DNA from: Ensifer adhaerens
GTDB lineage: Bacteria; Pseudomonadota; Alphaproteobacteria; Rhizobiales; Rhizobiaceae
Direction of reading: 5' to 3'
Assembly: GCF_001270265.1 (NCBI RefSeq)
Contig: NZ_LGAP01000009.1
Location: 1 to 64,000, forward strand
DNA: 64,000 bases
Shown: positions 25,306-46,472 of the stretch, in pieces
Layout: every line of letters begins with the position of its first letter
Numbering within the stretch: the first letter of the stretch is position 1
Program-made: the position numbers and the translations under genes
Notes under the pieces: model-generated
Seen by the model: the letters and a program-made list of their open reading frames with translations, nothing else
Told to the model about the DNA's origin: nothing
Database searches by the model: none

Positions 25306-25467
25306 CGGATGTCGTTCCTTGCTCGGGCCATGGACGGGCGCAATTCTGCGGCCGATGGCGCTTGCCTCGGGGTGTCGAAGGTCGGGGCCGGCGCGGATCC
25401 GATAGGACCGCCCTGTCTCAGACAGAGGCGAGGCGCATCAGAGCCGCGTCGGCCGACCGAACGGACT

Positions 25468-26502: not shown

Positions 26503-26536
26503 GCGTATTCCCCTTTTTTGATATTCGCTGCGATTG

Positions 26537-27910: not shown

Positions 27911-27921
27911 GTTGCGATTTT

Positions 27922-27945
27922 CCTGTACGTAGTTGTATATGGAAC
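27922..27945. promoter_or_regulatory. Candidate HutC operator
   Basis: Two half-matches to the HutC site (core TTGTATNTACAA) lie in tandem: CCTGTACGTAG and TTGTATATGGAA. They sit directly in front of hutF and about 130 bp before the hutC start, so binding could repress both. Known HutC is released by urocanate. Confidence 0.4.
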
Positions 27946-28074
27946 TATAGATATTTTACGGTGGCGCGCAAGCGCGAAATGAACGAAAAGAATCATTGCC
28001 GGATACGCATGATTTGTTCGGCATCCGAAAAGACGGGGCAAAAGCCGATGACGGCACTCAGGCGAAGGAACGAC

Positions 28075-28854: not shown

Positions 28855-31782
28855 ATGGTTGAAGACGCGCTGAAGCTTCGCACGCAGCTGCCAAGGCCCG
28901 ATGTGACGCCTGAGGACGTGGCGCGCATTCTTTCGGAGCATTTCGGCCTCTCCGGCGCCTTGACCGAACTGGGAAGCCAGCAGGATCGCAACTACCGGAT
29001 CGACACCGACGAGGCCCGTTTCGTGCTGAAGATCTGCCAGGCGGCCTATGACCTGCAGGAGCTGCAGGCCCAGAACGCCGCCTTGCTGCATCTCGCCCGT
29101 CAGGCCGGCTCGGTGCGGGCGTCGCAGGTCGTGCGGGCGCTCGACGGCAACGACATCGTCGACGTGACGGTGCGTGGCGAGGCCTATCGCGTTCGTCTGC
29201 TCACCTATCTCGATGGCGTGCCGTTGACGCGGCGCAAGTATCTGGCGGCCGAAACCGTGGCTGCGCTTGGCGACATCGCCGGGCGGCTGGCGGTCGCGCT
29301 TCGTGATTTCGATCATCCGGGCCTTGACCGTGAACTGCAATGGGACCTGCGGCACGCCGCCCCGGTCGCACTGCACCTGCTTGCCGCCATGACCGACGAG
29401 GGCCTGAAGAAACGAATTGCCGAGGCCATGGTCGGGGCCATGCGCCGGCTGCAGCCGCTGACCGCCGATCTGCGCATCCAGGCCATCCACCACGACGTGA
29501 CCGATGACAATGTCGTCGGTCAGCCGGATGCCGCCGGCCGGCCGATTCCGGATGGCGTCATTGATTTCGGCGATATTCTGAAGGGCTGGCTCGTCGCGGA
29601 ACTGGCGGTAACCTGTGCCTCGCTGCTGCACCATGCCGATGGCGATCCTCTCTTCATTCTGCCGGCCGTCCGGGCCTTTCACGCGGTCTGCCCGCTTGAG
29701 GAAAGCGAACTGAAGGCGTTATGGCCGCTGATCGTCGCGCGCGCTGCGGTCCTGGTCGCCAGTTCCGAACAGCAGCTCACCATCGACCCTGATAACGCCT
29801 ATGTGCAGGGTAACGCCGCGCATGAACGCGAGATCTTCGACGTTGCCGTCTCCGTGCCGCCGGCCCTGATGCAACATGCGATCCTGCGCGCCGTTGGTGC
29901 TGCACCGGAGGCGACGACGCCGGTGGTGGGCGAGGGACTGCTCATCGAGATAGAGCCGGCCGGCGTGCGCCAGATCGATCTTTCGATCCTCAGCCCCTTG
30001 CTTCCCGAGGAGCGCTGGCAGCACGGTGGCCTTCCGACCTCGCTGCTGCAGACGGCAGCGCATGCGATCGGGATGGCGTCGACCCGCTATGGCGAGTATC
30101 GGCTGACCGAGAGCGCACTTCGGGCGTCAGTGCCTACGCCAACCTTTGCCCTGCATGTCGATCTCTGCTTGCCGACCGGGACCATGGTCAGGGCACCCTT
30201 TGCCGGCCGGATCGAATGGCATGCCGAGCGGATGGCTCTGAACGGCGGGGCGGGCGTTCTCCACCTCTCCGGTCTCGAGCCGCCTGAAGATACCGATGAG
30301 ACGGTCGCCGCCGGCATGCCGATAGGCGTGGTGGTCGAGGCCGGCCACGGGCTCGGCCTGATGCGGGTGCAGCTCTGCCGCGAACCGGGGCTGATGCCGC
30401 CGCTGTTTGTCCCGGCCCATCAGGCGGACGCCTGGCGCGTGCTCTGCCCGTCACCATCAGGCATTCTCGGTTTCGACTGCGATGCACAGACGCCGCATTC
30501 GACCGAGCTGCTTGATCGCCGCCAGCAGCATTTCGCCAGGCCGCAGAAGAACTACTACCGCACGCCGCCGCAGATCGAGCGCGGCTGGAAGGAACACCTG
30601 TTCGACGTCGAGGGCAGGGTCTATCTCGACATGGTCAACAACGTCACCATCCTTGGCCACGGCCATCCGCGGCTGGCGGCCGCGGTCGGCCGGCAATGGT
30701 CGCTGCTCAACACCAATTCACGTTTCCACTATGCCTCGGTCGCCGAGTTTTCCGAACGGCTTGCCGCACTGGCGCCTGATGACCTCGATACGGTCTTCCT
30801 CGTCAACAGCGGCTCGGAAGCCAACGATCTCGCCCTGCGGCTTGCCTGGGCTTTTTCCGGCCAGCGCAACGTCGTCAGCCTGCTCGAGGCCTATCACGGC
30901 TGGACGGTGGCGAGCGACGCGGTCTCGACATCGATCGCCGACAACCCGCAGGCGCTCAGCACCCGCCCGGACTGGGTGCATGCCGTGGTGGCGCCCAACA
31001 CCTATCGTGGCCCGTTCCGCGGCTCCGACACGACCGACAATTATGTGCGGTCGGTGGCCACCAAGCTGCGCGAACTGGAGGATGAGGGCCAAGGGCTTGC
31101 CGGCTTCATCTGCGAGCCGGTCTATGGCAATGCCGGCGGCATCCCGTTGCCGAAAGGCTATCTCGATGCAGTCTATGCCATGGTCCGGCAGCGCGGCGGT
31201 GTCTGCATCGCCGACGAGGTGCAGGTCGGCTACGGCAGGCTCGGCGACTATTTCTGGGGTTTTGAGGAGCAGGGCGTGGTGCCCGATATCATCACCATCG
31301 CCAAGGGCATGGGCAACGGCCATCCGCTCGGAGCCGTCATCACCCGGCGCGAGATTGCCGATGCGCTGGAGAAGGAAGGCTATTTCTTCTCGTCAGCCGG
31401 TGGCAGTCCCGTGAGCTCCGTTGTTGGGCAGACGGTGCTCGACCTTATCGAAGAGGAAAAACTGCAGGAAAACGCGCGCGTCGTCGGCGGCTACCTCAAG
31501 ACGAGGCTCGAAGCGCTGGAGCAGCGGTTTCCGCTCGTCGGTGCCGTGCACGGCATGGGGCTCTATCTCGGCGTCGAGTTCGTCCGCGATCGCGAAACGC
31601 TGGAGCCGGCAACGGAGGAGACCGCTGCCATCTGCGATCGGCTTCTTCAACTTGGTGTCATCATGCAGCCGACCGGCGACCATCTGAACGTCTTGAAGAT
31701 CAAACCGCCGCTCTGCCTCAGCCGGGAAAGCGCCGACTTCTTCGCCGACATGCTGACGCGCGTGCTGGAAGAGGGTTGGTAG
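28855..31782 (+). CDS. Trimodular kinase - degenerate M23-like - class III aminotransferase protein
   Basis: A 975-residue fusion. Residues about 30-310 are an APH-type kinase with catalytic HHDVTDDN (His212-Asp214) and the metal-binding VIDFGD. Residues about 370-540 align with an M23 peptidase domain but lack its ligands: the first His is Ala, and the final His-x-His is Met503-Arg-Val505. Residues about 555-975 are a class III PLP enzyme with TIAKGMGNGHP (Lys817). In animals, hydroxylysine kinase and the phospho-lyases AGXT2L1/2 belong to the two end families, and kinase-lyase fusions have been noted in bacteria. The likely reaction is phosphorylation then elimination of an amino alcohol. 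It follows hutC by 63 bp. Confidence 0.85.
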   Translation: MVEDALKLRTQLPRPDVTPEDVARILSEHFGLSGALTELGSQQDRNYRIDTDEARFVLKICQAAYDLQELQAQNAALLHLARQAGSVRASQVVRALDGNDIVDVTVRGEAYRVRLLTYLDGVPLTRRKYLAAETVAALGDIAGRLAVALRDFDHPGLDRELQWDLRHAAPVALHLLAAMTDEGLKKRIAEAMVGAMRRLQPLTADLRIQAIHHDVTDDNVVGQPDAAGRPIPDGVIDFGDILKGWLVAELAVTCASLLHHADGDPLFILPAVRAFHAVCPLEESELKALWPLIVARAAVLVASSEQQLTIDPDNAYVQGNAAHEREIFDVAVSVPPALMQHAILRAVGAAPEATTPVVGEGLLIEIEPAGVRQIDLSILSPLLPEERWQHGGLPTSLLQTAAHAIGMASTRYGEYRLTESALRASVPTPTFALHVDLCLPTGTMVRAPFAGRIEWHAERMALNGGAGVLHLSGLEPPEDTDETVAAGMPIGVVVEAGHGLGLMRVQLCREPGLMPPLFVPAHQADAWRVLCPSPSGILGFDCDAQTPHSTELLDRRQQHFARPQKNYYRTPPQIERGWKEHLFDVEGRVYLDMVNNVTILGHGHPRLAAAVGRQWSLLNTNSRFHYASVAEFSERLAALAPDDLDTVFLVNSGSEANDLALRLAWAFSGQRNVVSLLEAYHGWTVASDAVSTSIADNPQALSTRPDWVHAVVAPNTYRGPFRGSDTTDNYVRSVATKLRELEDEGQGLAGFICEPVYGNAGGIPLPKGYLDAVYAMVRQRGGVCIADEVQVGYGRLGDYFWGFEEQGVVPDIITIAKGMGNGHPLGAVITRREIADALEKEGYFFSSAGGSPVSSVVGQTVLDLIEEEKLQENARVVGGYLKTRLEALEQRFPLVGAVHGMGLYLGVEFVRDRETLEPATEETAAICDRLLQLGVIMQPTGDHLNVLKIKPPLCLSRESADFFADMLTRVLEEGW

Positions 31783-31808
31783 GGAACGGTCTTGCCGGCG
31801 GGCAGCCT

Positions 31809-33128
31809 TTACCAGCCGGCAAAGTCGGCAAGCACCGCGTCGGAAACCCGGCCGGCTGCGACATCGCCGAAGGCGCGGTCGAGAATGTCGAGCGCCTGAT
31901 CGATGTCCGCGTCCGATATGGTCAGCGGCGGCGTCATTTCCAGAACGTTTGAGTTCATGCCGACATAATAGACGACGAGGCCGAGCTCATAGGCGCGGTA
32001 GATCAGCTTGGCGGTTTCCTTTGCTGCTGGCGCGCGGCTTTCGCAGTCGACAACCAGCTCCACGCCCGAGGCAAGGCCGCGTCCGCGCACGTCGCCGATC
32101 AGGGCGTGGCGCCCGGAAAGTTGCCGCAGGCCCTCGCGCAGGCGCTCGCCCTTTCGATGGGCGGCCTCGGCGAGACCCTCTCGCTCGATGGTTTCGAGCA
32201 CGGCGAGGCCGGCCGCCGTCGAGACCGGGTTGCCGTGCAGGGTCTGCATCGCAAAGGCGGTGGCGCAGTCCAAAATCTCGGCCGGGCCGATCGCTGCCGA
32301 AAGCGGCAGGCCGCCGCCGAGCCCTTTGCCGATCGTCAGGATATCGGGCACGAAATCCTCGTGCTCGAAGCAATGCATCTTGCCGCTGCGGCCGAGACCG
32401 ACCTTGACCTCGTCGCAGACGACGAGAATGCCGTGTTGCCTGCAGAGATCGGTGAACTTTTTGAAGAACCCCTTCGGCGGGACGATCAGCCCGCCGTCCG
32501 ACTGGATCGGCTCGATGAAGGCGCAGCCGATCCGTTCCGGCGGCGCCGTCGTCGCGAACTGCTGTTTCAAGAGATCGAGGATCGCTTCGCCGCTGACGTC
32601 GCCCTGGAAGGGCCGGTAGGGGTCGGGGTAGGGCAGCAGGATCAGGCCCTCCGCCTTGGTCGCATCTGACTGGACGCTGTGCCCGGAAAAGGCCATCGAA
32701 CCGATGGTGCAGCCGTGATAGGCGCCGACAAAGGAGATGACGCCGCTGCGGCCGGTAGCCTTCGCAACCGCCCGGAAGACCGCTTCGTTGGCGTCCGAGC
32801 CGGAATGGCCGAACCAGACCTTGTTGCGTCCCATGCCAGGGAAAAGGCTGAGCAGTTTTTCCGCAAGAGCGGTCGCGGGTGCATTGGCGGCGGACAGCAC
32901 GCTCGCGCCCGCCGGGTTGGCGACGGCGCGCGATACCGCCTCGACCAGTGCGGGATGGCCATAGCCAAGGCTGGCAGCCCCCCACGTGCCGGAAAGATCG
33001 ATCAGTTCACGACCGTTGTCCTCGACGAGGCGTGCACCATAGCCGCCGGCGATGGCAAGCGGAAAGAACCGCAGTTTTTGCATGTTGGCGATCGCTTGTC
33101 CGTCCCTCGCATAGAGGCCCTCGGTCAC
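31809..33128 (-). CDS. Class III aminotransferase, aspartate aminotransferase family
   Basis: A 439-residue PLP enzyme of the GABA/beta-alanine/diamine aminotransferase group. The PLP lysine is in DILTIGKGLGGGLP, and the CDEVKVGLGRSG and GSDANEAVFRA motifs are normal. I chose GTG at 33128: it has AAGGAG eight bases upstream and forms a GTGA overlap with the preceding stop; an ATG at 33161 lies inside that upstream gene. It is coupled to the amidohydrolase-like gene, so it probably removes an amino group from the product of that enzyme. The exact substrate is unknown. Confidence 0.88.
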   Translation of the reverse strand: MTEGLYARDGQAIANMQKLRFFPLAIAGGYGARLVEDNGRELIDLSGTWGAASLGYGHPALVEAVSRAVANPAGASVLSAANAPATALAEKLLSLFPGMGRNKVWFGHSGSDANEAVFRAVAKATGRSGVISFVGAYHGCTIGSMAFSGHSVQSDATKAEGLILLPYPDPYRPFQGDVSGEAILDLLKQQFATTAPPERIGCAFIEPIQSDGGLIVPPKGFFKKFTDLCRQHGILVVCDEVKVGLGRSGKMHCFEHEDFVPDILTIGKGLGGGLPLSAAIGPAEILDCATAFAMQTLHGNPVSTAAGLAVLETIEREGLAEAAHRKGERLREGLRQLSGRHALIGDVRGRGLASGVELVVDCESRAPAAKETAKLIYRAYELGLVVYYVGMNSNVLEMTPPLTISDADIDQALDILDRAFGDVAAGRVSDAVLADFAGW

Positions 33129-33946
33129 GGGTGGCACTCCTTGAGGCTCGTCTGGAGACAACGGGTCAGTCGTTCACCCCAGGCCTTTACGCCTACACCG
33201 GTATCGATCAGGTCATGCCTGACTTCGATCAGCACGCCCGGCAGCTTGCGCGCGTCGGCATGCACCGGCACAGTGTAGTCCTCGTCCGGATGAATATTGT
33301 AGGGCTCGTTGTCGCCGATCGTCAGCTGCTCGTCGCTGCTCAAGTCCCGGATCAAAGACTGTGCGAAAGCCTCGGCGTCGCGATAGAGAATGCCCGCCTG
33401 CCACGGCCGTGGCTTGCCGAAATAGACGGGGGTGAAGCTGTGTACGCCGACGACGAACGGCCGCTCGCCTTTCGCTTCTAGCAGGTCGAGGCGTCGTGCA
33501 ACGGCATCGGCGAAGGGCTTGAACAGCGTGTCCACCCGCTGCTTTCGCTCCATCTCGCTCAGATCCCGGTTTGCCGGGATCTCCGTCGTTTCGCTCACTT
33601 CCGGAATGAAGGACGGCGCTGAAAGCGGGCGATTACAGTCGATCACCAGCCTGGAATAGTTGGTAAAGAACAGCGGCGCGTCGAGGCTGAGGCTCAAATG
33701 CTGGGCGAGCGCCAGCGCACCGATGTCCCAGGCGATATGGCGCCGGCGCTCGTGTTCGGGCAGGCCCATGTCGCCGAGTGCGCGCGGCATGCGGTTGGAC
33801 GCATGCTCGCACAAGAGCAGGAACGGCGACTTGCCGTCCGGGTTGAACACCGCATAGGGCGGCGGCTCGTCGATCGCCAGAAGCGGCTGGCGCGGGTCGT
33901 GCCGTCCGTGTCGGTCGGGGCTCTTGATGGCCGTTGTCGAAGTCAT
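33125..33946 (-). CDS. N-formylglutamate amidohydrolase-like protein
   Basis: A 273-residue member of the predicted N-formylglutamate amidohydrolase family. Its LLLCEHASNRMPRALGDMGL start, the HIAWDIGA block, NYSRLVIDCNRP and VGVHSFTPVYFGK are typical, with His and Glu for a zinc site. It is the divergent group of this family rather than the classical HutG, so deformylase activity is not proven. Because it is coupled to an aminotransferase and near a GS-like ligase, it may instead cleave a gamma-glutamyl or another N-acyl bond. Confidence 0.82.
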   Translation of the reverse strand: MTSTTAIKSPDRHGRHDPRQPLLAIDEPPPYAVFNPDGKSPFLLLCEHASNRMPRALGDMGLPEHERRRHIAWDIGALALAQHLSLSLDAPLFFTNYSRLVIDCNRPLSAPSFIPEVSETTEIPANRDLSEMERKQRVDTLFKPFADAVARRLDLLEAKGERPFVVGVHSFTPVYFGKPRPWQAGILYRDAEAFAQSLIRDLSSDEQLTIGDNEPYNIHPDEDYTVPVHADARKLPGVLIEVRHDLIDTGVGVKAWGERLTRCLQTSLKECHP

Positions 33947-33961
33947 GGGAGCCTATCCGTA

Positions 33962-35308
33962 TCAGTAGACGGCCGCGTAGCGGGCGCAGAGTTCGTCGGG
34001 CGAGAGGCCGTCGACGATCTCGATTTCCTTGCGCTTCATCGCGACGTAGCAATCGAGGAAGTCCTTGGCGAACCAGCCGGTCACCACCGTGTCTTCAGCA
34101 AGCGTTTCGAGTGCTTCCGGCAGGCTGGAAGGCAGCCGGCGGATGCCGAGCTTCTTCTGGTCCTCGTCGGAAAAATTGGAAGGATCCGAGTTGATCAGCG
34201 GCGGCTGTTCGAGCCCGGCCCGGATGCCTTCGAGTCCGGCCTTGAGCAGGACGGCCAGCGACAGATGCGGGCTCGCGCAGGCGTCGGCGGCGCGGTACTC
34301 CATATTGAACTGTTTGGCCGGGTTGCTGCCGGGCAGGTCGAGCGTCGGGCAGATCCGGAGCGTCGCCTCGCGGTTCTTCTCGCCAAGGCAGGTATAGGCA
34401 GCGCTCCAGTGATGCGGCACGAGCCGCATATAGGACAGCACTGACGGGGCGGTGAAGGCGGTCAGCGCCGGCAGGTGGCGGATGACACCGGCCGCGAAAG
34501 AGCCGGCAACTTTTGACAGGCGACCCGGGCGCGACGCGTCGAAGGTGACGGGGTTGCCGCTGAGATCGGTGAAGCTGACATGCAGATGTACGCCGTTGCC
34601 GACCCCGTTGGCGCTCGTCTTCGGCGCGAAGCTGGCGTTCCAGCCGAAGAGGGCGGCCACTTCCTTGGTGATGGCGCGGATCGTCGCGCCACGGTCGGCC
34701 GCCGTCAGCGCATCCGCCGGTCGGCAGGTGATCTCGAACTGGTCCTTGCCGTATTCCGGCAGGAACATTTCCGGCTCGGCGCCCGCCTCCTGCAGCGCCG
34801 TCATCAACAGCGGGCCGAAGGGTTCGGCACGGCGCTGGGCGCGCAGGCCGAAGGACGGCGCGTCGGGCCAGTCGACGCCGAGAAGCTGGAACTCCTGCTC
34901 GACGGCGGAGATGACCTTCAGGCCGGCCTCGCGCTCGAACTCTTCAAGCGTGCGCTTGAGGAAACTGCGCACGCAGCACTCCCACGGGTCGCCTTTGAGG
35001 TCGGTGATATCGGAATGATAGAAATGCAGCGGCGTGACGTCGGGCAGGCAGGTGACGCGCGCCTTGCTGGCGGGGTCGGCCATCAGCCGCAGGTCGCCGG
35101 AAGAGCCCCAGGGATTGTTCTCGGCGATCTGGTCGAACGGCGTCAGCGCCAGATTGGCGGGCACCCAGCCGACACCCTTGCGCAGATAGTCGTCGATCTG
35201 CGCGGCGGCGAAGCTGCGGCCGCGGGTGATGCCGGCGATGTCGGTGGTGACGAAGGTCGCGAGTTCCGTCAGCGCGGAATGAGCCTTGCCGTTGTTGTTC
35301 TCGGTCAT
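33962..35308 (-). CDS. Glutamine synthetase-like ligase (PuuA/GlnT group)
   Basis: A 448-residue protein of the glutamine synthetase fold. The N-terminal beta-grasp domain (about 20-110) leads into the catalytic domain with EQEFQLL, NGVGNGVHLHVS (the ammonia and glutamate-binding His) and the NREATLRICP arginine segment. It is shorter than housekeeping GlnA and lacks the Tyr adenylylation loop context. Relatives make gamma-glutamyl amines (putrescine, ethylamine and similar), so its substrate is probably an amine, not ammonia. It heads an operon-like run with the two genes downstream. Confidence 0.85.
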   Translation of the reverse strand: MTENNNGKAHSALTELATFVTTDIAGITRGRSFAAAQIDDYLRKGVGWVPANLALTPFDQIAENNPWGSSGDLRLMADPASKARVTCLPDVTPLHFYHSDITDLKGDPWECCVRSFLKRTLEEFEREAGLKVISAVEQEFQLLGVDWPDAPSFGLRAQRRAEPFGPLLMTALQEAGAEPEMFLPEYGKDQFEITCRPADALTAADRGATIRAITKEVAALFGWNASFAPKTSANGVGNGVHLHVSFTDLSGNPVTFDASRPGRLSKVAGSFAAGVIRHLPALTAFTAPSVLSYMRLVPHHWSAAYTCLGEKNREATLRICPTLDLPGSNPAKQFNMEYRAADACASPHLSLAVLLKAGLEGIRAGLEQPPLINSDPSNFSDEDQKKLGIRRLPSSLPEALETLAEDTVVTGWFAKDFLDCYVAMKRKEIEIVDGLSPDELCARYAAVY

Positions 35309-35344
35309 GAATTCCCCTCTTGTCTCAAGATCTTTGGCGGCGGC

Positions 35345-36007
35345 TCAGGCTTGACGCAGGCCCTGAAGGCGGTTGACGACGGTGTCGGTATCGGTGGTCC
35401 AGCAGTAGCCGGAGTAGGCGCGAAGGGCGCCTTCGTGGCGCTCGGGGCTGTAGGTCGCGCAGGCGTCGTTGACGACGGTGACGAGGTAGCCGCGGTCGGC
35501 AGCATCGCGCACCGCCATGTCGACGCACTGGTCGGTGATGACGCCGGCGATGATCAGGTAGCGGGTGTTGAGGTTGCGCAGGATGTAGTCGATGTTGGTG
35601 GAGTTGAAGACGCCGGACGAGGTCTTCGGCAGCACGATCTCGTTGTCTACAGGCGCCAGCTCGGGAATGACCTGGCCCTCGGGCGAGCCCTTCGGCACAT
35701 GCATGTCGGACAGCTTGTGGTCGAGCGAGCGGTCGCGGCCGTCGAGCGTCAGGCTCTCGATGATGGTGTGCAGCACTTCGCAGCCGGCCTTGCGGGCAGC
35801 TTCGAGGATGCGGACCTGGTTGGGGATCACCGTCTGGCGCAGCCGCTTGTGGTAGTAGCTGTCGGCGTCCTGCGGATGGGTCGGATCGAGATTGGGTTCG
35901 CACCAGATGCGCTGCATGTCGACGAACAGCACGGAGGTGCGGCCGCGCTCGTAATCGCTGTCGCGTCTCAGCATGTCGTCCCCGACCTTGACTGTAACGG
36001 CACTCAT
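35345..36007 (-). CDS. Isochorismatase-like cysteine hydrolase
   Basis: A 220-residue hydrolase. The catalytic triad of the family is visible: Asp in VLFVDMQR, Lys in LPKTSSGVF and Cys in VITDQCVDMAVRDAADRG. Relatives are nicotinamidase, ureidoacrylate amidase and biuret or N-carbamoyl amide hydrolases. With a GS-like ligase, N-acyl hydrolase and aminotransferase next to it, a role in cleaving an amide or ureido bond of a nitrogen substrate is likely. It begins at 36007 and is 40 bp from the RpiR regulator gene on the same strand. Confidence 0.88.
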   Translation of the reverse strand: MSAVTVKVGDDMLRRDSDYERGRTSVLFVDMQRIWCEPNLDPTHPQDADSYYHKRLRQTVIPNQVRILEAARKAGCEVLHTIIESLTLDGRDRSLDHKLSDMHVPKGSPEGQVIPELAPVDNEIVLPKTSSGVFNSTNIDYILRNLNTRYLIIAGVITDQCVDMAVRDAADRGYLVTVVNDACATYSPERHEGALRAYSGYCWTTDTDTVVNRLQGLRQA

Positions 36008-36047
36008 TCGGATTCTCCTCGGTTGTGGTTTTCGCCGGGCAAGCGTG

Positions 36048-36929
36048 TCAGCGGCCGTCGTCGACGTTCGGGTTGAGAGCGTCTTCAGTGATGGCGTAGC
36101 CGCGGCGCAGCTCCTCCATCCGCTCGATGCGGGCGCGCGATTGGGTGGCGAGACGGGCGGTGAGCGCCGCGATCAGCGCCTCCGTCTGGGCGATCGCCGG
36201 CACCATCGTGTCATAGGGCGAGACCGTATCGACCGGCGCCGTCAGCGTGACGGTGGCGAAATCGGCGATCGGCGAAATCCACCGGTCGGTGAACAGCACG
36301 ATGCGTGCGCCCTGTGCCGCCGCCTGCCGGGCGAAGCGAATGGTGTCGTTCTGGTAGCGGCGGTAATCGTAGACGAAGAGCACGTCGCGTTTGCCGAGAT
36401 CGACGAGCTGGTCGACCTGGTCTGCCTGGCTGCCGTTGATCCAGCGGGTATCACCGCGCAGCTGCTTCATATGCGACCAGAGCAGGCCGGCGAGAAAGCC
36501 GCTGAAACGGCCGCCGAGGCAATGCGCGCGCGCGCTCATGTCTGCGGCTGCATCAACCGCTGCCTCGAAATCTTCCGACGGCAGCATCTGCATCGAAGCT
36601 TCGAGCGCATGGATGCTGGCGCGCAGGAAGTACTGGTAGAAATTCTCCTGCTCCAGCGACGGCCGCCGCTCATCGAGCATCGACAGCGGCGAACTCATGC
36701 GCTCCTGCACTTCGCCGAGCAGCGCCTTCTGAAACTCCGGATAACCCTCGAAACCAAGCTTGTTGGCAAAGCGCACGACGGTCGGATTGCTGACCCCCGC
36801 CGACGAGGCCAGATAGGCAACGGTATTCAGTCCCGCTGCCGGATAGTTCGACAGGAGCTGCCGCACGATCTTCAGTTCCGATCGTGTGAAGGTAATAGCC
36901 CCGTCTGTCAGTCGATCCCGGATTGCCAC
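36048..36929 (-). CDS. MurR/RpiR-family transcriptional regulator
   Basis: A 293-residue regulator. I chose GTG at 36929 because GGAGG lies eight bases upstream; an upstream ATG at 37025 would add 32 residues without family likeness. The N-terminal RpiR helix-turn-helix (about 5-80: LIVR-like core GVSNPTVVRFANKLGFEGYP) is followed by the SIS domain, usually binding sugar phosphates or other ligands. It lies divergent from the ABC transporter starting at 37108 and probably controls both directions. Confidence 0.87.
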   Translation of the reverse strand: MAIRDRLTDGAITFTRSELKIVRQLLSNYPAAGLNTVAYLASSAGVSNPTVVRFANKLGFEGYPEFQKALLGEVQERMSSPLSMLDERRPSLEQENFYQYFLRASIHALEASMQMLPSEDFEAAVDAAADMSARAHCLGGRFSGFLAGLLWSHMKQLRGDTRWINGSQADQVDQLVDLGKRDVLFVYDYRRYQNDTIRFARQAAAQGARIVLFTDRWISPIADFATVTLTAPVDTVSPYDTMVPAIAQTEALIAALTARLATQSRARIERMEELRRGYAITEDALNPNVDDGR

Positions 36930-37107
36930 GATTTCCGCCTCCCAAAAATGATGGCTTGAACCCCAGTTTCTAATTTTTGTTACATAATTGCTAGCAGAGA
37001 ATGTTTTTTGAAACAAGATTGACATTTGATCGAGATGGGATAACTTTCATTTCGGGAACTGGCCCGAGCCAAAAACAACGGCGGGTCGACAATTCGGGGG
37101 AATGCAG

Positions 37108-38985: not shown

Positions 38986-39020
38986 TCAGCAAACGAAAAT
39001 CAGAAAGAGGGAGCTTACCG

Positions 39021-40184
39021 ATGAAATCCAATCTCAGGGCCCTGTGCCTCACCACCGTTCTTGGCGGCTTCATGCTGTCGCCGTTGCCGGCGCTCGCCGA
39101 AGACCTGGTCATCGGCCTTGCAACCGCTCAGACCGGCGGTCTTGCTCCCTATGACCAGCCGTCGCTGAAGGGCCTGGAAATGGCCGTCGAGGAGATCAAC
39201 GCGGCCGGGGGGGCTGCCGGCAAGTTCCCGATCAAGCTCGTGGCCAAGGATACCCGCTCGGATGCGGCCCAGACGGCGCTGGTGGCGCAGGAACTGGTCG
39301 ACCAGGGCGTCAAGATCATGATCACGCCCTGCGATGCCGATCCATCGATCGCCGCCGGCCAGGTGACGCAGGCCGCCCAGATCCCGGCCTTTTCGTTCTG
39401 CGCCACGACCCCGACCATGCCGCTTGCCGTCGGCGACTACATGTTCGGCAACTATCCCGCCGACAACGTCCAGGCCGCGGTGCTTGCCACCTATGCCGTC
39501 GAGAAGGGCTATAAGAAGGCCTACATCCTCAAGTCTCCGGATAGCGCCTATACGCTGAAGCTCCCGGAGTATTTCGGCGAAGCCTTCAAGGCCAAGGGCG
39601 GCGAGCTTCTCGGTGAAGGCACGTTCAGCATGGGTCAGCAGGATTTCGGCGCCGAAGTCACCAAGATCAAGGCGATGAACCCGGCGCCCGACGTCATCAT
39701 GACCGCGGCCTACGAGCCCGATTTCCCGGCCTTCATCCGCCAGCTGCGCGGCGCCGGTGTGACCATCCCGATCCTCGGCAGCGACGGCATCGACTCGCCG
39801 ACGACCTTCGGCCTTGGCGCGACGGTCGATGGCGTGGTCTTCACCACGGCCGGCTTTGCCAGTGAAGGCAGCCCGCTCGCCGACTTCAACGTGAAGTACA
39901 AGGAGAAGTTCGGCCAGGAGCCGGACACCGTCTACATCGCCAATGGCTATGATCTCGGCAAGGTCATCGACGCTGCTGTCACCGAAGCCAACAGCATTGA
40001 CCCGGTCGCCATCCGCAACGCCATCGCCTCGCTCGAAAATGTCCAGGGCGTTACCGGCCCGATCAGCTATGCCGGCACGCAAGGCATGCCGTTGCGCTCG
40101 GTCTCGCTGGTGCGCATCGGAGGCGGAAACCGCGAACTGATCAGCCAGGGCGTTCCGGCCGCGGCCGACATTCCGGCCCCCTGA
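39021..40184 (+). CDS. Periplasmic binding protein of LivK type
   Basis: A 387-residue exported protein. The signal peptide TTVLGGFMLSPLPALA ends before EDLVIGLATAQTGGLAPYDQ, a type I periplasmic-binding fold. The start at 39021 is supported by GAGGGA upstream. It belongs to the leucine/amide/urea-binding group, but which ligand it holds cannot be told. Note its position inside the transporter operon between the fused LivMG and LivF, which is a common but not universal order. Confidence 0.88.
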   Translation: MKSNLRALCLTTVLGGFMLSPLPALAEDLVIGLATAQTGGLAPYDQPSLKGLEMAVEEINAAGGAAGKFPIKLVAKDTRSDAAQTALVAQELVDQGVKIMITPCDADPSIAAGQVTQAAQIPAFSFCATTPTMPLAVGDYMFGNYPADNVQAAVLATYAVEKGYKKAYILKSPDSAYTLKLPEYFGEAFKAKGGELLGEGTFSMGQQDFGAEVTKIKAMNPAPDVIMTAAYEPDFPAFIRQLRGAGVTIPILGSDGIDSPTTFGLGATVDGVVFTTAGFASEGSPLADFNVKYKEKFGQEPDTVYIANGYDLGKVIDAAVTEANSIDPVAIRNAIASLENVQGVTGPISYAGTQGMPLRSVSLVRIGGGNRELISQGVPAAADIPAP

Positions 40185-40287
40185 ACCGTCGCTACTTGAG
40201 ACCTCCGGCGAGGGCGCCGGAGATCGCCCGGCCGCAACCGACTCCTCGCAATGCCGTATCGCAATCCATGGCAAGGACTTTGCCCCG

Positions 40288-41025
40288 ATGATGCACAGTG
40301 AAATTCCCGCTCAGAAGCCCTTGCTCGAAGTCAGCGGTCTCAAGGTCGCCTATGGTGCCGTCGAGGCGCTGAAGGGTGTCGATCTCACCGTCGGCAAAGG
40401 GCAAATCGTCACGCTGCTCGGGGCCAACGGTGCCGGCAAGAGCTCGACGCTGAATGCGCTGGTGGGGCTGGCGGCAAAGAAGGCGGGGCGGGTCTCCTTC
40501 AACGGCCAGGATATTTCCGGCCTGCCGCCGGAGCAGATCGTCCGGCTCGGCATGACGCTGACGCCGGAAGGCCGACGCATCTTTCCAAGCCTGACGGTGG
40601 ACGAACATCTGCTGCTCGGCGGCGCCATGCACAAGGCACGCGGTGCGATCTCCGAGGTGCGGGACGACATGCTGTCGCGCTTCCCGATCCTGAAAGAACG
40701 TCTTGGCCAGAAGGCCGGTTCGCTTTCCGGCGGTGAGCAGCAGATGCTGGCGATCGCCCGCTCGATGATGTCGTCGCCCGACCTGCTGCTGCTCGACGAA
40801 CCTTCGCTTGGCCTTGCGCCACAGATCGTTGACCTGATCTTCGACCTGATTGCCGGCCTGCGCCAGAAGGGGCTGACGATCCTGCTCGTCGAGCAGAACG
40901 TCGCCCTTTCGCTCGAAATCGCCGACGCCGGCTATGTCATGGCGAACGGACGCATCGTGCTCTCCGGTACCGCGGCCGAGCTTCGCAACTCAACCGAAAT
41001 CCAGGGCGCCTATCTCGGCGCTTGA
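40288..41025 (+). CDS. Branched-chain-type ABC ATPase (LivF)
   Basis: A 245-residue ATPase. Walker A GANGAGKSST, the Q-loop, signature LSGGEQQMLAIARSM and Walker B LLLLDEPSLGLAP are intact, and the C-terminal YLGA is typical of LivF. It begins 103 bp after the binding-protein gene and is followed closely by LivH. With the fused ATPase, the transporter has the usual two different ATP-binding subunits. Confidence 0.9.
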   Translation: MMHSEIPAQKPLLEVSGLKVAYGAVEALKGVDLTVGKGQIVTLLGANGAGKSSTLNALVGLAAKKAGRVSFNGQDISGLPPEQIVRLGMTLTPEGRRIFPSLTVDEHLLLGGAMHKARGAISEVRDDMLSRFPILKERLGQKAGSLSGGEQQMLAIARSMMSSPDLLLLDEPSLGLAPQIVDLIFDLIAGLRQKGLTILLVEQNVALSLEIADAGYVMANGRIVLSGTAAELRNSTEIQGAYLGA

Positions 41026-41050
41026 GGCCGGAGGCAAAGAGGTCATAACG

Positions 41051-41938
41051 ATGGACATGTTCCTGCAGCAGCTGGTCAATGCGCTGAGCCTCGGCGGCAC
41101 CTATGCGCTTCTCGCACTTGGGCTTGCGGTCGTCTTCTCGATCATGGGGCTGATCAATTTCGCCCATGGCGAACTGATGACGGCGGCCGGCTACGGGCTG
41201 TGCTTCGCCCTTTTGCTGGGGCTGCCCTTTCCGCTCGCCATCTTCGGCGCGCTGATGATCGCCGTAGTGCTTGCCATGCTGATGGAGCGTGTCGCCTTCC
41301 GGCCGGTGCGGGGTGCCAGCGGCACGACGCTGCTTCTCACCAGCTTTGCCGTCAGCGCCATCCTGCGCGTCATCTTCCAGAACTTCATTTCGGCGCGGCC
41401 GAAACCGGTGCCGATGCCGGAGAGCTTTTCCGGGGCGATCGAGATCGGCGGCCTGCATCTCGGCCTGATCCAGGGCACGTCGATCCTGGTCACCGTCATC
41501 ATGCTCGTCGGGCTCAACCTCTTCCTGCGCACGACCGTTCTTGGCCGGGCGATGCGGGCGGCCTCGGAGGACTTCGCCATTGTCCGGCTGATGGGCATTC
41601 GCGCCAATGCCGTGGTGGCGACCGCCTTTGCGATTTCGGGGCTGCTCGCGGGTGTGGCAGGCATCCTCTGGGTGGCCCAGCGCGGCAGCGTCGATCCGCT
41701 GATGGGCTTCCTGCCGGTGTTGAAGGCTTTCATCGCCGCAATCATCGGCGGGCTCGGCAGCCTCTCCGGCGCGGTTGCCGGCGGCTTCCTGCTCGGCTTC
41801 ATCGAGGTGTTCCTGCAGGCCTATCTGCCGGAAAGCCTGCTCAGCTACCGCGATGCCTTCACCATCCTGCTCGTCATCGGTGTGCTTCTCTTTGCGCCGC
41901 AGGGGCTGCTTGCGCGCAAGACGATCGTCAAGCTCTGA
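41051..41938 (+). CDS. Branched-chain-type ABC permease (LivH)
   Basis: A 295-residue membrane subunit with about eight helices. LGLAVVFSIMGLINFAHGEL near the start and the EAA-like GANAVVATAFAISGLLAGVA-type loop are LivH features. The start at 41051 has AGAGG eight bases upstream; the longer frame from 40934 overlaps livF. It closes the operon and a strong terminator follows. Together the four genes make a complete importer. Confidence 0.9.
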   Translation: MDMFLQQLVNALSLGGTYALLALGLAVVFSIMGLINFAHGELMTAAGYGLCFALLLGLPFPLAIFGALMIAVVLAMLMERVAFRPVRGASGTTLLLTSFAVSAILRVIFQNFISARPKPVPMPESFSGAIEIGGLHLGLIQGTSILVTVIMLVGLNLFLRTTVLGRAMRAASEDFAIVRLMGIRANAVVATAFAISGLLAGVAGILWVAQRGSVDPLMGFLPVLKAFIAAIIGGLGSLSGAVAGGFLLGFIEVFLQAYLPESLLSYRDAFTILLVIGVLLFAPQGLLARKTIVKL

Positions 41939-41968
41939 TCGCCAGAGCGATCATTTCAGATCGAATGC

Positions 41969-42010
41969 AAAGCCGCGAGGGTTTCCCTCGCGGCCTTTGC
42001 TTTTGTTTGA
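41969..42010 (+). terminator. Terminator of the branched-chain-type transporter operon
   Basis: AGCCGCGAGGG and CCCTCGCGGC arms close a three-base loop, followed by CTTTGCTTTTGTTT. It is about 30 bp after the last stop. Confidence 0.85.
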
Positions 42011-42113
42011 AATCTTCCTTCCGGCGAATGTCCTGTGCGGGACGAGCCGGCCCAAAGAATGCAGGCGCGGGGCAGTGGACCGCTTGCCGTCGCCGACGGT
42101 TGCGCCGAGCGCT

Positions 42114-42149
42114 AAAACAAAAACGCCGCGGGGAGGAGCCCGCGACGTT
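42114..42149 (-). terminator. Terminator of the polar amino-acid binding protein gene
   Basis: On the minus strand CGTCGCGGG, a six-base loop, CCCGCGGCG and a T-rich tail lie about 20 bp after the stop at 42171. Confidence 0.75.
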
Positions 42150-42170
42150 CGATGGTGTGGAGCTGTGCGG

Positions 42171-43181
42171 TCAGCGTGCCGGCGGCGCGTACATCAGGCC
42201 GCCCTGGCTCCACAGCTTGTTGAGGCCGCGGTCGATCTTGAGTGCGCTGTCCTTGCCCAAGTGTTTTTCGAAAACCTCGCCGTAGTTGCCGACGGCGGAG
42301 ATTGCCTGGAAGGCCCATGTCGGGCCGAGGCCCAGCGCCTTGCCGGCTTCGTTGTCGATGCCGAGGAAACGCCTCTGGCCGACGGTGCCGCTTTCCTGCA
42401 TCTTGGCCGCATTCTCCTTGGTGATGCCAAGCTCTTCGGCTTCGATCATCGCGAACAATGTCCAGCGCACGACCTTGAACCACTGCTCGTCGCCCTGGCG
42501 CACGGCCGGTCCGAGCGGCTCCTTGGATATGACTTCGGGCAGGACGACGAAGCGCTCCGGGTCGTTCAGGGTCAGGCGCTGGGCGTAGAGCGCCGAGGCA
42601 TCGGTCGAGTAGACGTCGCAACGTGCGGTGTTGAAGGCCTGGATCGTCTGGTCGGGTTTCTCGAAAGCGATGACCTGGTACTGGATGTTGTTGGAGCTGA
42701 AGTAGTCGGCCATGTTCTGCTCGGTCGTCGTGCCGGTTTCCGTGCAGACGGAGGCGCCCGAGAGTTCCTTGACGCTCTTCACGCCGAGGTCGTTGCGCAC
42801 CATGAACGCCTGGCCGTCATAATAGTTGACGCCGACGAAGCTCATGCCGAGATCGCTGTCGCGCGACAGCGTCCAGGTGGTCTGGCGCGACAGAAGATCG
42901 ACTTCGCCCGACTGCAACGCGGTGAAGCGCTCCTTGGTCGAGAGCGGCACGTATTTCACCTTGTCCGGGTTGCCGAGCGTGGCAGCGGCGGCCGCCCGGC
43001 AGAAGTCGATGTCGAAGCCGCTCCACTCGCCCTTGTCGTTCGGCGCGGAAAAGCCGAGCACGCCCTGGCTGACGCCGCAGCGAAGCTCGCCCCGTTCCTT
43101 CACGACATCGAGCGTGGCGGCGCTGGCGGCCGTTCCAGCGAGAAATGCCGCACTTGCAAGTGCTAGAATTCCTGATTTCAT
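42171..43181 (-). CDS. Polar amino acid ABC binding protein (AapJ type)
   Basis: A 336-residue periplasmic protein. The signal peptide ILALASAAFLAGTAASA precedes a type II binding fold, with VVKERGELRCGVSQGVLGFS typical of AapJ/general amino acid binding proteins. The permease and ATPase (aapQMP type) are not in the window, so it may use the transporter of another locus. It is 106 bp from the second trimodular gene on the same strand and could be co-expressed with it. Confidence 0.88.
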   Translation of the reverse strand: MKSGILALASAAFLAGTAASAATLDVVKERGELRCGVSQGVLGFSAPNDKGEWSGFDIDFCRAAAAATLGNPDKVKYVPLSTKERFTALQSGEVDLLSRQTTWTLSRDSDLGMSFVGVNYYDGQAFMVRNDLGVKSVKELSGASVCTETGTTTEQNMADYFSSNNIQYQVIAFEKPDQTIQAFNTARCDVYSTDASALYAQRLTLNDPERFVVLPEVISKEPLGPAVRQGDEQWFKVVRWTLFAMIEAEELGITKENAAKMQESGTVGQRRFLGIDNEAGKALGLGPTWAFQAISAVGNYGEVFEKHLGKDSALKIDRGLNKLWSQGGLMYAPPAR

Positions 43182-43287
43182 TGTCCTGTTCTCCTCTTGT
43201 TATGCAGTTATAAGGCACGCGTCATCGCTGCCGGGGCGCGCGCGTCCCGGCCAACTGGCTATCGTTTCGGCGGTATCGGGCCCGGTC

Positions 43288-46200
43288 CTAACCGAGCTTC
43301 TTGCTCACATCCGCAAAGGTCTCTTCGAGAACCGCGAGCAGATGATCGGCGTCGCGTTTCGAGAAGATCATCGGCGGTCGCATCTTCAAGACGTTGTCAT
43401 GCGGCCCTTCGGTTCCCATCAGCACGCCGCGCTGGCGCGCACCGTTGGAAACGGCACGGGCAAATTCGGTGGCGGGTGCCTTGGTCTTCCGGTCGCTGAC
43501 CAACTCTATGCCGAGGAACAGGCCCATGCCACGCACGTCGCCGATCACTTCGTAACGCGCCTGCATCGCCTTGAAGGAGGAGATGAGATAGTTGCCTATG
43601 GAAAGTGCGTTGCCGCGCAGATCCTGCCCCTCGATGACATCGAGCACGGCAAGGCCGACGGCGCAGGAAACCGGGTTTCCGCCGAAGGTGTTGAAGTACT
43701 CCATGCCGTTGTTGAAGCTGTCGGTGACCTCGCGGGTGGTGACGACGGCGGCCAGCGGATGCCCGTCTCCGATCGGTTTGCCCATGGTGACGATATCGGG
43801 AACCACGCCTTGGGCCTCGAACGCCCACCAGTGGCTGCCGACACGGCCGAAGCCGACCTGGACCTCGTCGGCGATGCAGACGCCGCCGGCTTCGCGCACC
43901 AGGCGATAGACTTCCTTGAGATAGCCGTCCGGCAGGAACACCTGGCCGGCGACGCTCGGGATCGATTCCGCGATGAAGAAGCCCGGGCCTTCGCCCTTCG
44001 CCTGCATGGCCGCGATCAGTTCGGCGACGCTTTCAGCAAAACGCCTGCCGTGTTCCTCGGCCGGCCAGTCGGCGGGGGCACGATAGCTGTCGGGAACATC
44101 AGCGACGTGGATGTGCGGCTTCGGTCCCTTGCCGCCCTTGCGACGGAACTTGTAGGGGCTGATATCGATCAGCTCTTGCGTCGTGCCGTGATAGGACCAG
44201 TCGAGCGTGATGGCGTTTTCGCGGCCGGTATGGGCGCGCATCAGGCGCAGCGCCAGGCTGTTTGCCTCCGAGCCGCTGTTGACGAAACCGGCTACCGTCA
44301 ATTCCCCAGGCAGCGTCGCCGTCAGCCGTTCCGCATAGGCGACGATGTTGTCGTGCAGGTAGCGGGTATTGGTATTGAGCGTCGCCGCCTGCTTCGCCAT
44401 CGCCTCGACGACTGCCGGATGGGCATGGCCGATGTGGCAGACATTGTTGAAGCAGTCGAGATAGGCGCGGCCGCTGTCGTCGATCAGCCAGACGCCTTCG
44501 CCGCGCACGAACTTGATCGGCTTCTCGTAGGAGATCGACAGGTTCGGCAGCAGCAATTCCTTGCGCAGCTTGACGATCTCGTCATGCGCGCGTCCGCTTT
44601 TCGCGTAAAACTCGTCGGCAATGCCGGCAAAGGTGCGCGCGTCGGGGAAGAGCTCGGCCCAGACGTCGAGATATTGCGGTTCGCCGACGCCGAGGATTTC
44701 TGTTGCCGAGAGGCTGGTATCGACGGAGAGCTGCAGGTGAAGATGCGGCGCCCAGCCGCCGTTTTCCTTCGGCGCTCCCATTTCGCCGACGAGCGCACCG
44801 GCTTCGAGCCGGTCGCCGGCCTTGATCCGGTCCATCGCCTCGTGGGCCAGATGGCCCCAGAGCGACACGAAGGGAGGGCAGCCCTCGGGCTCGTGGCGAA
44901 GCGAAATCAGGCAGCCGTAACCGAGCGGGTCCTTTTCGATCTCGACGCTGACCACCGTGGCGGCGATCGGCGTGAAAACCTTGGTTCCGGCCGCCATGAA
45001 CAGGTCGAGGCCGAGATGGCGGGTGCGGCGGGTATCCTCGATCAGTCGCGAGACGAACATCTCGCCGGAATAGACAGTGCGGGCTTCACCCCATGGGCCG
45101 ATGCCGAGATCGATGCCGTTCTCGCGGCAATAGTCTTCCCAGATCGCCTGTGCTTCATCCGGCTGTTCGCCGGCGGATTTGACCGTCATCGGATGGTTCG
45201 GGTCGCCATAGGGCACGAGTGCTGCCGGATAGGTCGCGGCCGGGCGTTCGAGCAACGGTGCAAGCGTCTTGCGGTTGCCGGCAATCCAGGCGGTAACGCC
45301 GTCCGCGCCGGGTGCTGCGGCAAAGCCGCAGGCCTTGCGCAGGATCGCGGTGGCGAAGCGCCGATTCATCCGGTCGAGCTTGCGCAGCAGCGTCCAGGCC
45401 GGCTTTTCGCTGATCGCGAGATAGGGGTTATCGGCCGTGTGGGCGCGGCGCGAGGCCGAGATCGTCACTGAGGTGACGAGCCGCATGGCGACAAGGTCGA
45501 AGAGAAGATCGACTTCTTCCTCAAGCAGCGGATACTCGGCGTGGTAGCCGCGGGCGATGGCGGCCGTGGCGCCGATCGGATCGGGATGGTCGAGGCCGGC
45601 ATAGGCGGCGGCGATAGCGACTTCGGCGATGACAGGCGCATAGAGCGCGTCGCCGAAATCGATCAGGCCGGAGATACGGTCATGATCCGCCTTGTCGACC
45701 AGCACGTTCCAGTCGTTGGCGTCATTGTGGATTACAGCCGAACGTAGCGTCGCCAGTTTCGGCTCGACCGTCTTTGCAAAGCGGGCAAGGAAACGCTCGA
45801 GCAGCGCCCGGTCTTCCGGTTCGGAGACATGGTCCAGCCTGTCCCTGGAGCGGCCGGCCTTGCGGATGTCCCAGTCGAGATCGCGCAGCGCCCCCGGATG
45901 CATGAAGCCTTTCAGCGAGGCGTCGAAGCGGCCGAGCATTTGGCCGAGCGATTGGAGCGCGCCGGCGCTGCGGCCGGTTTCGGCAAGCGGAAGACCCGAG
46001 ACCCAGCTGACGAGACGCAGCCTGTGGCGGGCTCCGTGGGTGCTGGTGGTTTCGGCAAGGCTGGCGCCCGTCAATGTCGTCCGGATGTGCGGCACCGGCA
46101 ATTCGGCGGCGAAAGTACTGACATGGCTGAGCAGCGCCGTCTGGAAGTCGCTTTCGATCTCCGGCTCGGCGCCATTGACTACCTTCAGGATATAGGTGGC

Positions 46201-46344
46201 ACCGTCTGCTGCCTCGACCTTGAAGTTCTGGTCGCGTTCGCTGGCGAGCAGCGAAAGCGTGCCGGCAAGGCCGTAATGCTGCTTCAGTAGTGCCGCTGCC
46301 TGGTCGATGGAAAAATCTGGTGTCGTCTTCAGCATGTCGTTCAT
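43288..46344 (-). CDS. Trimodular kinase - M23 domain - class III aminotransferase protein
   Basis: A 1018-residue homologue of the protein at 28855, with the same order of domains. The APH kinase has [10 protein letters not shown] (His206, Asp208) and LIDFGDALY. The central M23-type domain keeps likely zinc ligands: His-x-x-x-Asp in [16 protein letters not shown] and HLHLQL (His534, His536). The class III PLP domain has [11 protein letters not shown] (Lys856). No signal peptide exists, so a cell-wall peptidase role in the cytoplasm makes little sense. It may act on a small amide. The start at 46344 is preferred over 46392. It is divergent from an Lrp regulator, which may control it. Confidence 0.87.
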
Positions 46345-46411: not shown

Positions 46412-46472
46412 TTGCACCGACATTATGTTTATAATAACCGTCATCTTGTCGGCGCGCTCGGAGGCGGAAACC

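What the first reader, a model, noticed from the sequence alone, without database searches (positions are those of the whole stretch)
28855..46344. Two kinase/M23-like/class III aminotransferase fusions flank a catabolic gene cluster
Proteins at 28855-31782 and 43288-46344 share the same three-domain order. The end domains have complete catalytic residues (HHDVTDDN and Lys817; [10 protein letters not shown] and Lys856). In animals, hydroxylysine kinase and the AGXT2L phospho-lyases match these end families, so one polypeptide may phosphorylate an amino alcohol and then eliminate phosphate and ammonia to an aldehyde. The central domain and the natural substrate are unknown, and finding two copies within 18 kb suggests a specialised route. 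This is the best candidate here for an undescribed system.
Basis: partly seen in the sequence, partly recalled or inferred. Interest (0 to 1): 0.72.

Follow-up and report, generated by a model that had tools for sequence, protein, structure and literature searches.

The report
Fused enzyme for collagen hydroxylysine
Two large three-part bacterial enzymes are really there; genome neighbourhoods suggest that the kind with an intact middle part breaks down hydroxylysine, the sugar-bearing amino acid of animal collagen, although nobody has tested this at the bench.

Summary
Both proteins are real full-length kinase–middle–lyase polypeptides, but not two copies of one thing. P0002 (43288-46344, minus strand) is NCBIfam PRK06148; its middle domain keeps every M23 zinc-peptidase active-site residue. 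P0001 (28855-31782) is PRK06149; its middle domain is an eroded M23 that has lost two of three zinc ligands. Both lyase domains match human ethanolamine-phosphate phospho-lyase far better than any transaminase, so phosphorylate-then-eliminate chemistry is the best reading. The architecture is already curated and (recalled) guided the 2012 discovery of human hydroxylysine kinase. New here is the likely substrate. In several phyla PRK06148-type genes, or M23-less relatives, sit in operons with an alpha-glucosidase (GH63) and a beta-galactosidase-type enzyme (GH2, GH42, GH1), the two cuts needed for collagen's Glc(a1-2)Gal(b)-hydroxylysine, or with 4-hydroxyproline epimerase and D-amino-acid dehydrogenase. 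The hydroxyproline-epimerase family occurs in 10 of 10 PRK06148 genomes against 57 of 279 others (Alphaproteobacteria) and 23 of 27 against 8 of 53 (Bacteroidota). The window's own genome holds a GH63–GH42 operon around a second PRK06148 gene. P0002's own neighbours do not show this; P0001's substrate stays open. Nothing was assayed.

The parts
28855..31782 (+). P0001, PRK06149-type fusion (975 aa): kinase, eroded M23, phospho-lyase domain
28885..29829 (+). P0001 APH-type kinase domain (residues 11-325)
   Evidence: (Pfam 38-264)
29830..30498 (+). P0001 eroded M23 domain (residues 326-548): two of three zinc ligands and the HxH histidines lost
30499..31779 (+). P0001 class III aminotransferase-fold phospho-lyase domain
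43288..46344 (-). P0002, PRK06148-type fusion (1018 aa from ATG at 46344; longest frame starts at 46392)
45373..46332 (-). P0002 APH-type kinase domain (residues 21-340 of the long frame)
   Evidence: no PDB relative by sequence at E 0.01
44593..45207 (-). P0002 M23 metallopeptidase domain; H459, D463, H514, H550, H552 all present
43291..44580 (-).
42171..43181 (-). amino-acid ABC substrate-binding protein, 106 bp after P0002, same strand; same neighbour in 13 of 25 loci of P0002's group
46446..46907 (+). divergent Lrp/AsnC-family regulator (frame from 46290; start 46446 or 46473 likelier); same neighbour in 14 of 25 loci of P0002's group
27904..28791 (+). hutC-type regulator, 63 bp before P0001, same strand (true start probably inside the frame); adjacent at -1 in 5 of 23 PRK06149 loci

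Best explanation
The PRK06148 type (P0002, and the second copy at C4 in the same genome) is a cytoplasmic trifunctional catabolic enzyme for 5-hydroxylysine, the collagen amino acid. Proposed order: sugars are removed where needed by an alpha-glucosidase and a beta-galactosidase; the M23 domain splits a hydroxylysine-containing di- or small peptide; the APH-type kinase makes 5-phosphohydroxylysine; the PLP lyase eliminates phosphate and ammonia to 2-aminoadipate semialdehyde. Shown: domains, active-site residues, fold, neighbours, co-occurrence. Inferred: every reaction, the substrate and the role of M23. PRK06149 (P0001) keeps kinase and lyase, has lost the peptidase site, and probably takes a free hydroxylated amine or amino acid that is not identified.
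For: (1) Lyase: 6tor 467 bits (P0002) and 342 bits (P0001); best non-phospholyase in those lists 197 and 206 bits; model closest to 6tor. (2) M23: five active-site residues kept in 39 of 39 and 26 of 26 kinase-M23-lyase proteins and 2 of 2 M23-lyase proteins, and in 75 to 77 of 77 in the many-phyla set; the domain model (pLDDT 90.2) matches lysostaphin, LytM, ShyA and other M23 folds. (3) GH63 plus a beta-galactosidase-type enzyme in one locus: L143, L144, L124, L126 and the window's own C4 operon (GH63, GH42), L162, L207, L295 (GH63, GH2), L197, L204 (GH63, GH1), and the M23-less L277, L279, L280 (GH63, GH42). Collagen's glycan is alpha-Glc-(1-2)-beta-Gal-O-hydroxylysine (PMC11012932, passages). 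(4) 4-hydroxyproline epimerase (NF010578, 579 and 582 bits, cut-off 376) plus a D-amino-acid dehydrogenase beside it in L175 and L180; phmmer relatives of that pair in 5 of 26 loci of a fresh Bacteroidota sample. (5) Genome level: PF05544 in 10 of 10 against 57 of 279 (P 2.6e-7; 6e-6 with one per family label) and 23 of 27 against 8 of 53 (P 1.1e-9; 7e-7 in genomes of 3 Mb or more). (6) A Lys/Arg/Orn-type binding protein in the operon.
Against: No assay exists here. Most loci show neither sugar nor hydroxyproline genes: 7 of 39, 10 of 77 and 7 of 26 kinase-M23-lyase loci do. None of the 25 loci of P0002's own group has GH63, GH2, GH42 or hydroxyproline genes by phmmer; one (L133) has a GH1 4.9 kb away. 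The best solved lyase relative is the phosphoethanolamine enzyme; the hydroxylysine enzyme is not in the PDB lists seen. GH1 hits are named beta-glucosidase. The hydroxyproline-family gene of L221 is below every equivalog cut-off and nearest to trans-3-hydroxyproline dehydratase. PF05544 is also raised in genomes with other lyase-family genes (13 of 29), and PF05544 holds proline racemases too. The GH63 proximity test (7 of 52 rows within 6 kb, expected 0.12) used 50 genomes that I chose knowing most of the positives, and distances set afterwards. M23-less kinase-lyase fusions sit in the same kind of operon (3 of 5), so M23 is not needed where sugars are cut.
Confidence: 0.6

Rival explanations
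1. Ethanolamine (or 1-amino-2-propanol) utilisation: kinase makes O-phosphoethanolamine, lyase makes acetaldehyde; M23 is incidental.
For: Best solved relative of both lyase domains is human ethanolamine-phosphate phospho-lyase.
Against: Does not explain a strictly kept M23 site, hydroxyproline epimerase genes, paired alpha-glucosidase and beta-galactosidase, or Lys/Arg/Orn-type binding proteins. The human pair ETNPPL / PHYKPL are close paralogues (recalled), so similarity to 6tor does not separate them.
Confidence: 0.15
2. The family acts on another glycosylated or peptide-bound hydroxy-amine, for example a bacterial hydroxylysine lipid head group or another sugar-amino alcohol.
For: Hydroxylysine lipids were reported in the soil bacterium Pseudopedobacter saltans (PMC4484230, passages; their retention time suggested another hydroxyl position than C5). 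Neighbourhoods differ between groups, so substrates may too.
Against: The repeated link with 4-hydroxyproline genes and with exactly an alpha-glucosidase plus a beta-galactosidase points to collagen.
Confidence: 0.15
3. P0001 and P0002 are ordinary class III aminotransferases, as annotated, with a fused kinase of other function.
For: RefSeq and NCBIfam names ('aminotransferase').
Against: Bit-score gap between phospholyases and transaminases; the kinase is kept in the same chain and also occurs as a split gene next to the lyase (G266, own C23).
Confidence: 0.06
4. The M23 domain is only a scaffold or spacer between the two enzymes.
For: True or likely for PRK06149: H459 and H552 lost in 23 of 23. 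M23-less kinase-lyase fusions exist.
Against: For PRK06148 all five active-site residues are kept in sets from Alphaproteobacteria to Thorarchaeota.
Confidence: 0.2

Closest known systems
NCBIfam NF004799 (PRK06148.1, 'hypothetical protein') and NF004800 (PRK06149.1, 'aminotransferase')
   Same: P0002 and P0001 are full-length members over the curated cut-offs.
   Different: The models carry no reaction or substrate.
Human hydroxylysine kinase (HYKK/AGPHD1) and the phospho-lyases ETNPPL (AGXT2L1) and PHYKPL (AGXT2L2)
   Same: Kinase family and phospho-lyase family; AGXT2L1 and AGXT2L2 are lyases on phosphoethanolamine and phosphohydroxylysine (PMC9283133, passages).
   Different: In animals separate proteins and no M23 domain (recalled).
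Bacterial phospholyase A1RDF1 (5g4i)
   Same: Second-best solved relative of the lyase domain (354 and 262 bits).
   Different: A lone lyase of 446 residues in the PDB entry.
M23 peptidases lysostaphin, LytM, ShyA
   Same: Fold and active-site residues.
   Different: Those are cell-wall enzymes; here the domain is fused to two cytoplasmic enzymes.
Collagen-utilisation cluster of Colwellia (PMC7883544)
   Same: 4-hydroxyproline epimerase, D-hydroxyproline dehydrogenase and deaminase in one cluster (passages).
   Different: The word hydroxylysine does not occur in that main text; no kinase-lyase fusion in the passages seen.
PGGHG, the animal collagen glucosidase (GH65)
   Same: Removes the alpha-1,2 glucose of Glc-Gal-hydroxylysine (PMC11012932, passages).
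   Different: Here the candidate is a GH63-type enzyme (MGH1-like, best named relative alpha-glucosidase YgjK).

Membership tests
NCBIfam PRK06148 (NF004799) | P0002 over the curated full-length cut-off | tested here: met
   1654.9 bits, cut-off 1128
NCBIfam PRK06149 (NF004800) | P0001 over the curated full-length cut-off | tested here: met
   1571.5 bits, cut-off 973
M23 metallopeptidase | Pfam cut-off and HxxxD / GH / HxH site, P0002 | tested here: met
   45.6 bits against 28.7; all five residues; fold
M23 metallopeptidase | the same, P0001 | tested here: not met
   no Pfam match; H459 and H552 lost
M23 metallopeptidase | peptide bond hydrolysis | not testable with these tools
   needs assay
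AGXT2L-type phospho-lyase | nearest solved relatives are phospho-lyases, PLP lysine kept | tested here: met
AGXT2L-type phospho-lyase | phosphate and ammonia release from a phospho-amine | not testable with these tools
   needs assay
APH-type kinase / hydroxylysine kinase | APH fold family with catalytic Asp and Asn | tested here: met
   Pfam 81.8 and 101.6 bits, cut-off 23.2; motifs
APH-type kinase / hydroxylysine kinase | specificity for 5-hydroxylysine | not testable with these tools
   no solved relative by sequence at E 0.01
Collagen hydroxylysine catabolic operon | linked sugar or hydroxyproline genes at P0002's own locus | tested here: not met
Collagen hydroxylysine catabolic operon | linked GH63 and beta-galactosidase at the genome's second PRK06148 gene (C4) | tested here: met

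The most novel reading that the evidence does not exclude
PRK06148 is a one-polypeptide line for collagen: a cytoplasmic, possibly glycine-directed M23 peptidase frees hydroxylysine from collagen peptides, a kinase phosphorylates it and a PLP lyase opens it, fed by dedicated uptake and by an alpha-glucosidase / beta-galactosidase pair that strips Glc-Gal. It would be a bacterial and archaeal route for the second hallmark amino acid of collagen next to hydroxyproline, with the animal genes as its separated relatives.
Probability: 0.42. Interest if true: 0.8.

Novelty: new variant of a known kind. Interest (0 to 1): 0.62.

Why it matters
How microbes use hydroxylysine and its sugars, a constant part of animal collagen, did not turn up in any listing I saw. 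If right, two NCBIfam families named 'hypothetical protein' and 'aminotransferase' get a reaction, the odd M23 insert gets a reason, genomes across several phyla gain a readable marker for use of animal matrix, and the window's organism offers a direct genetic test through its C4 operon.

Tried and rejected
Plain aminotransferase reading: set aside because of the score gap to phospholyases. GPE/ethanolamine idea for the C4-type operon (a glycerophosphodiester pathway guessed from gene lengths): dropped when the genes proved to be an amino-acid ABC system, an SDR, a sugar ABC system and a GH63 enzyme. Hut-linked substrate for P0001: hutC adjacent in 6 of 23 PRK06149 loci (5 at -1), others show a PurU-type formyl transferase, amidohydrolase or oligopeptide transporter genes; no substrate follows. 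Kinase specificity from solved structures: no match. Separating ETNPPL-like from PHYKPL-like active sites: not possible, no PHYKPL structure seen in the lists. Second look by VIA-align: library absent. Literature for an existing description: (listings; open-licence papers only); none listed a bacterial hydroxylysine fusion.

Limits of the counts. Searches took 50 of those 80 loci. The operonic-neighbour Pfam tally used 70 of the 102 listed proteins. Gene calls are my own ORF heuristic, so neighbours can be missed. In one search the ten genomes include G161, full length but under the cut-off (1020 bits). In one search the 53 controls are the first non-matching genomes of the listing. GH63, GH1 and hydroxyproline P values are post hoc in distance; the Bacteroidota sample is the cleaner test, with G856 as the one genome known before.
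Full report
What is there. P0001 lies at 28855-31782 (+), P0002 at 43288-46344 on the minus strand. Pfam gives APH and Aminotran_3 in both and Peptidase_M23 in P0002 alone. NCBIfam places P0001 in NF004800/PRK06149 (1571 bits) and P0002 in NF004799/PRK06148 (1655 bits), full length and over the cut-offs. The organism belongs with Rhizobiaceae by inference: P0002 is 86% identical to a Shinella protein. Its genome (7.46 Mb, 99 contigs) also holds a second full PRK06148 gene on C4, a split kinase and lyase pair on C23 and a lone lyase on C13.

The lyase. The best solved relative of both C-terminal domains is human ethanolamine-phosphate phospho-lyase 6tor (342 bits for P0001, 467 for P0002), then the bacterial phospholyase 5g4i; the next entries, decarboxylases, racemases and transaminases, reach 206 and 197 bits. 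The AlphaFold2 model of P0002 (mean pLDDT 89.7, pTM 0.79) has 6tor and 5g4i as its first four Foldseek rows. Class III enzymes that catalyse such eliminations are few (PMC8154272, passages).

The middle domain. In P0002 the residues H459, D463, H514, H550 and H552 (numbering from 46392) are those of an M23 site. They are kept in 39 of 39 kinase-M23-lyase and 2 of 2 M23-lyase proteins of the first set and 26 of 26 of a Bacteroidota set, and in the many-phyla set in 77, 77, 77, 75 and 76 of 77; the exceptions are the actinomycetes L176 and L210. That set spans Alphaproteobacteria, Acidobacteria, Chloroflexi, Bacteroidetes, Gemmatimonadetes, Desulfobacterales, actinomycetes and Thorarchaeota by record title. 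The domain alone models well (pLDDT 90.2), and its 47 Foldseek matches at E 0.001 or better include lysostaphin, LytM, ShyA, Csd1-3, EnvC and SpoIIQ. In PRK06149, H459 and H552 are lost in 23 of 23; the Asp is kept in 14 of 23, P0001 among them. The 23 form one clade; its sister is three Bacteroidota proteins (L273-L275) that have also lost the site (FastTree, midpoint root). Architectures are mixed: kinase-M23-lyase, M23-lyase (L056, L057), kinase-lyase (for example L058, L061-L063, L276-L280) and separate genes (L046, L060). So the peptidase is a functional, separable module in PRK06148 and a relic in P0001.

Neighbours of P0002's own group. A divergent Lrp/AsnC regulator stands at -1 in 14 of 25 loci and an amino-acid binding protein at +1 in 13 of 25; both occur in the window. 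The binding protein is a Lys/Arg/Orn-family hit under its cut-off and closest to 4z9n. Sugar and hydroxyproline genes are not seen beside this group, apart from one GH1 4.9 kb away in L133.

Neighbours that point to collagen. The second own copy (C4) lies in an operon with LacI regulators, a Lys/Arg/Orn-type amino-acid ABC system, an SDR, a sugar ABC system, a GH63-type glycosidase (C4 89046-90752) and a GH42 beta-galactosidase (C4 85856-87904); its Ensifer counterpart matches the solved beta-galactosidase 1kwg with 758 bits. Related Rhizobiaceae loci L124, L126, L143 and L144 have both enzymes; L042 (S. meliloti 1021) has the GH42. In Bacteroidota, L162, L207 and L295 have GH63, fusion, GH2 beta-galactosidase in a row; L170 and L302 have fusion and GH2. 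In unnamed Pseudomonadota, L197 and L204 have GH63, fusion, Lys/Arg/Orn-type binding protein (L197) and GH1. Three of five M23-less Bacteroidota kinase-lyase loci (L277, L279, L280) have GH63 and a GH42 beta-galactosidase directly before the fusion, with a SusD gene in L277 and L279. Collagen carries alpha-Glc-(1-2)-beta-Gal on hydroxylysine (PMC11012932, passages of the main text; its abstract prints beta for the glucose), so an alpha-glucosidase and a beta-galactosidase are what a user of that unit needs.

The hydroxyproline link. After the first sugar result I noted hydroxyproline genes as a check. The operonic-neighbour tally then showed two proline-racemase-family genes: L175 and L180 have 4-hydroxyproline epimerase (579 and 582 bits, cut-off 376) and a D-amino-acid dehydrogenase before the fusion; L175 also has a DapA-family gene, as the hydroxyproline deaminase is (family placement recalled). 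L221 has a related gene below all cut-offs, and a GH63. In the fresh Bacteroidota sample, 5 of 26 fetched loci (L268, L269, L298, L299, L301) have relatives of the epimerase and the dehydrogenase beside the fusion, four of them with the DapA-family gene.

Co-occurrence. In 289 genomes of the class, PF05544 is found in 10 of 10 genomes with a full-length kinase-M23-lyase gene and 57 of 279 others (Fisher 2.6e-7); with one genome per family label P is 6e-6; genomes with other lyase-family genes stand at 13 of 29. In Bacteroidota it is 23 of 27 against 8 of 53 (1.1e-9), and 20 of 24 against 6 of 34 in genomes of at least 3 Mb. In 50 named genomes 40 have PF05544. Proximity: 7 of 52 GH63-family rows within 6 kb of the fusion (0.12 expected), 3 of 66 PF05544 rows within 2 kb (0.05 expected), 2 of 36 GH1 rows within 2 kb (0.02 expected, but one lineage only, P 0.02); these use chosen genomes and distances.

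What it most likely does. For PRK06148: hydroxylysine catabolism by hydrolysis, phosphorylation and phospho-elimination. The chemistry of kinase and lyase is the best-supported step, the substrate next, the role of M23 least. A preference of M23 relatives such as lysostaphin for glycine bonds is recalled and would suit collagen, where glycine follows hydroxylysine. For P0002 itself the assignment rests on family and on the paralogue, not on its own neighbours. For P0001 I claim only a kinase and phospho-lyase on a free hydroxy-amine.

Counts of loci with any of these sugar or hydroxyproline genes: 7 of 39 (L042, L044, L123, L124, L126, L127, L133), 10 of 77 (L143, L144, L162, L170, L175, L180, L197, L204, L207, L221) and 7 of 26 (L268, L269, L295, L298, L299, L301, L302) kinase-M23-lyase loci. 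Most loci therefore show none, which can mean scattered pathway genes or other substrates.

Known or new. Architecture: known. Kinase and lyase logic: known (2012 paper, recalled; its lyase result is cited in PMC9283133, passages). Not met in nine listings: a bacterial hydroxylysine pathway tied to these fusions, the intact and eroded M23 split, and the glycosidase and hydroxyproline linkage.

Noticed in passing
window 31809-41938: Cluster of class III aminotransferase, N-formylglutamate amidohydrolase family, glutamine-synthetase-like ligase, isochorismatase family, RpiR-type regulator and a branched-chain-type ABC transporter between the two fusions; related genes lie beside PRK06148 genes in L049, L050, L108, L110, L125 and L130. 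Substrate unknown.
   Followed up: partly
window 22148-28791: Histidine-utilisation type genes (HAL-like, transporter, hutF, hutC) directly before P0001; the order is shared with S. meliloti Ak57.
   Followed up: partly
L056 8717-10795 and L057 8444-10681: M23-lyase fusions without kinase; in L056 an oligopeptide-type ABC transporter (SBP_bac_5) is near.
   Followed up: partly
L273, L274, L275: Second fusion copies with an eroded M23 in Bacteroidota genomes that also hold an intact one (G926, G1023, G905), like the pair in the window.
   Followed up: partly
L158, L212: Kinase-M23-lyase type genes in records titled Thorarchaeota.
   Followed up: no
L267, L270, L300: Intact M23 but the histidine before the kinase catalytic Asp is replaced (NYND / IYND in place of IHND).
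   Followed up: no
L184: Record titled Bifidobacterium breve carries the fusion next to genes unlike that genus; possibly a mislabelled metagenome assembly.
   Followed up: no
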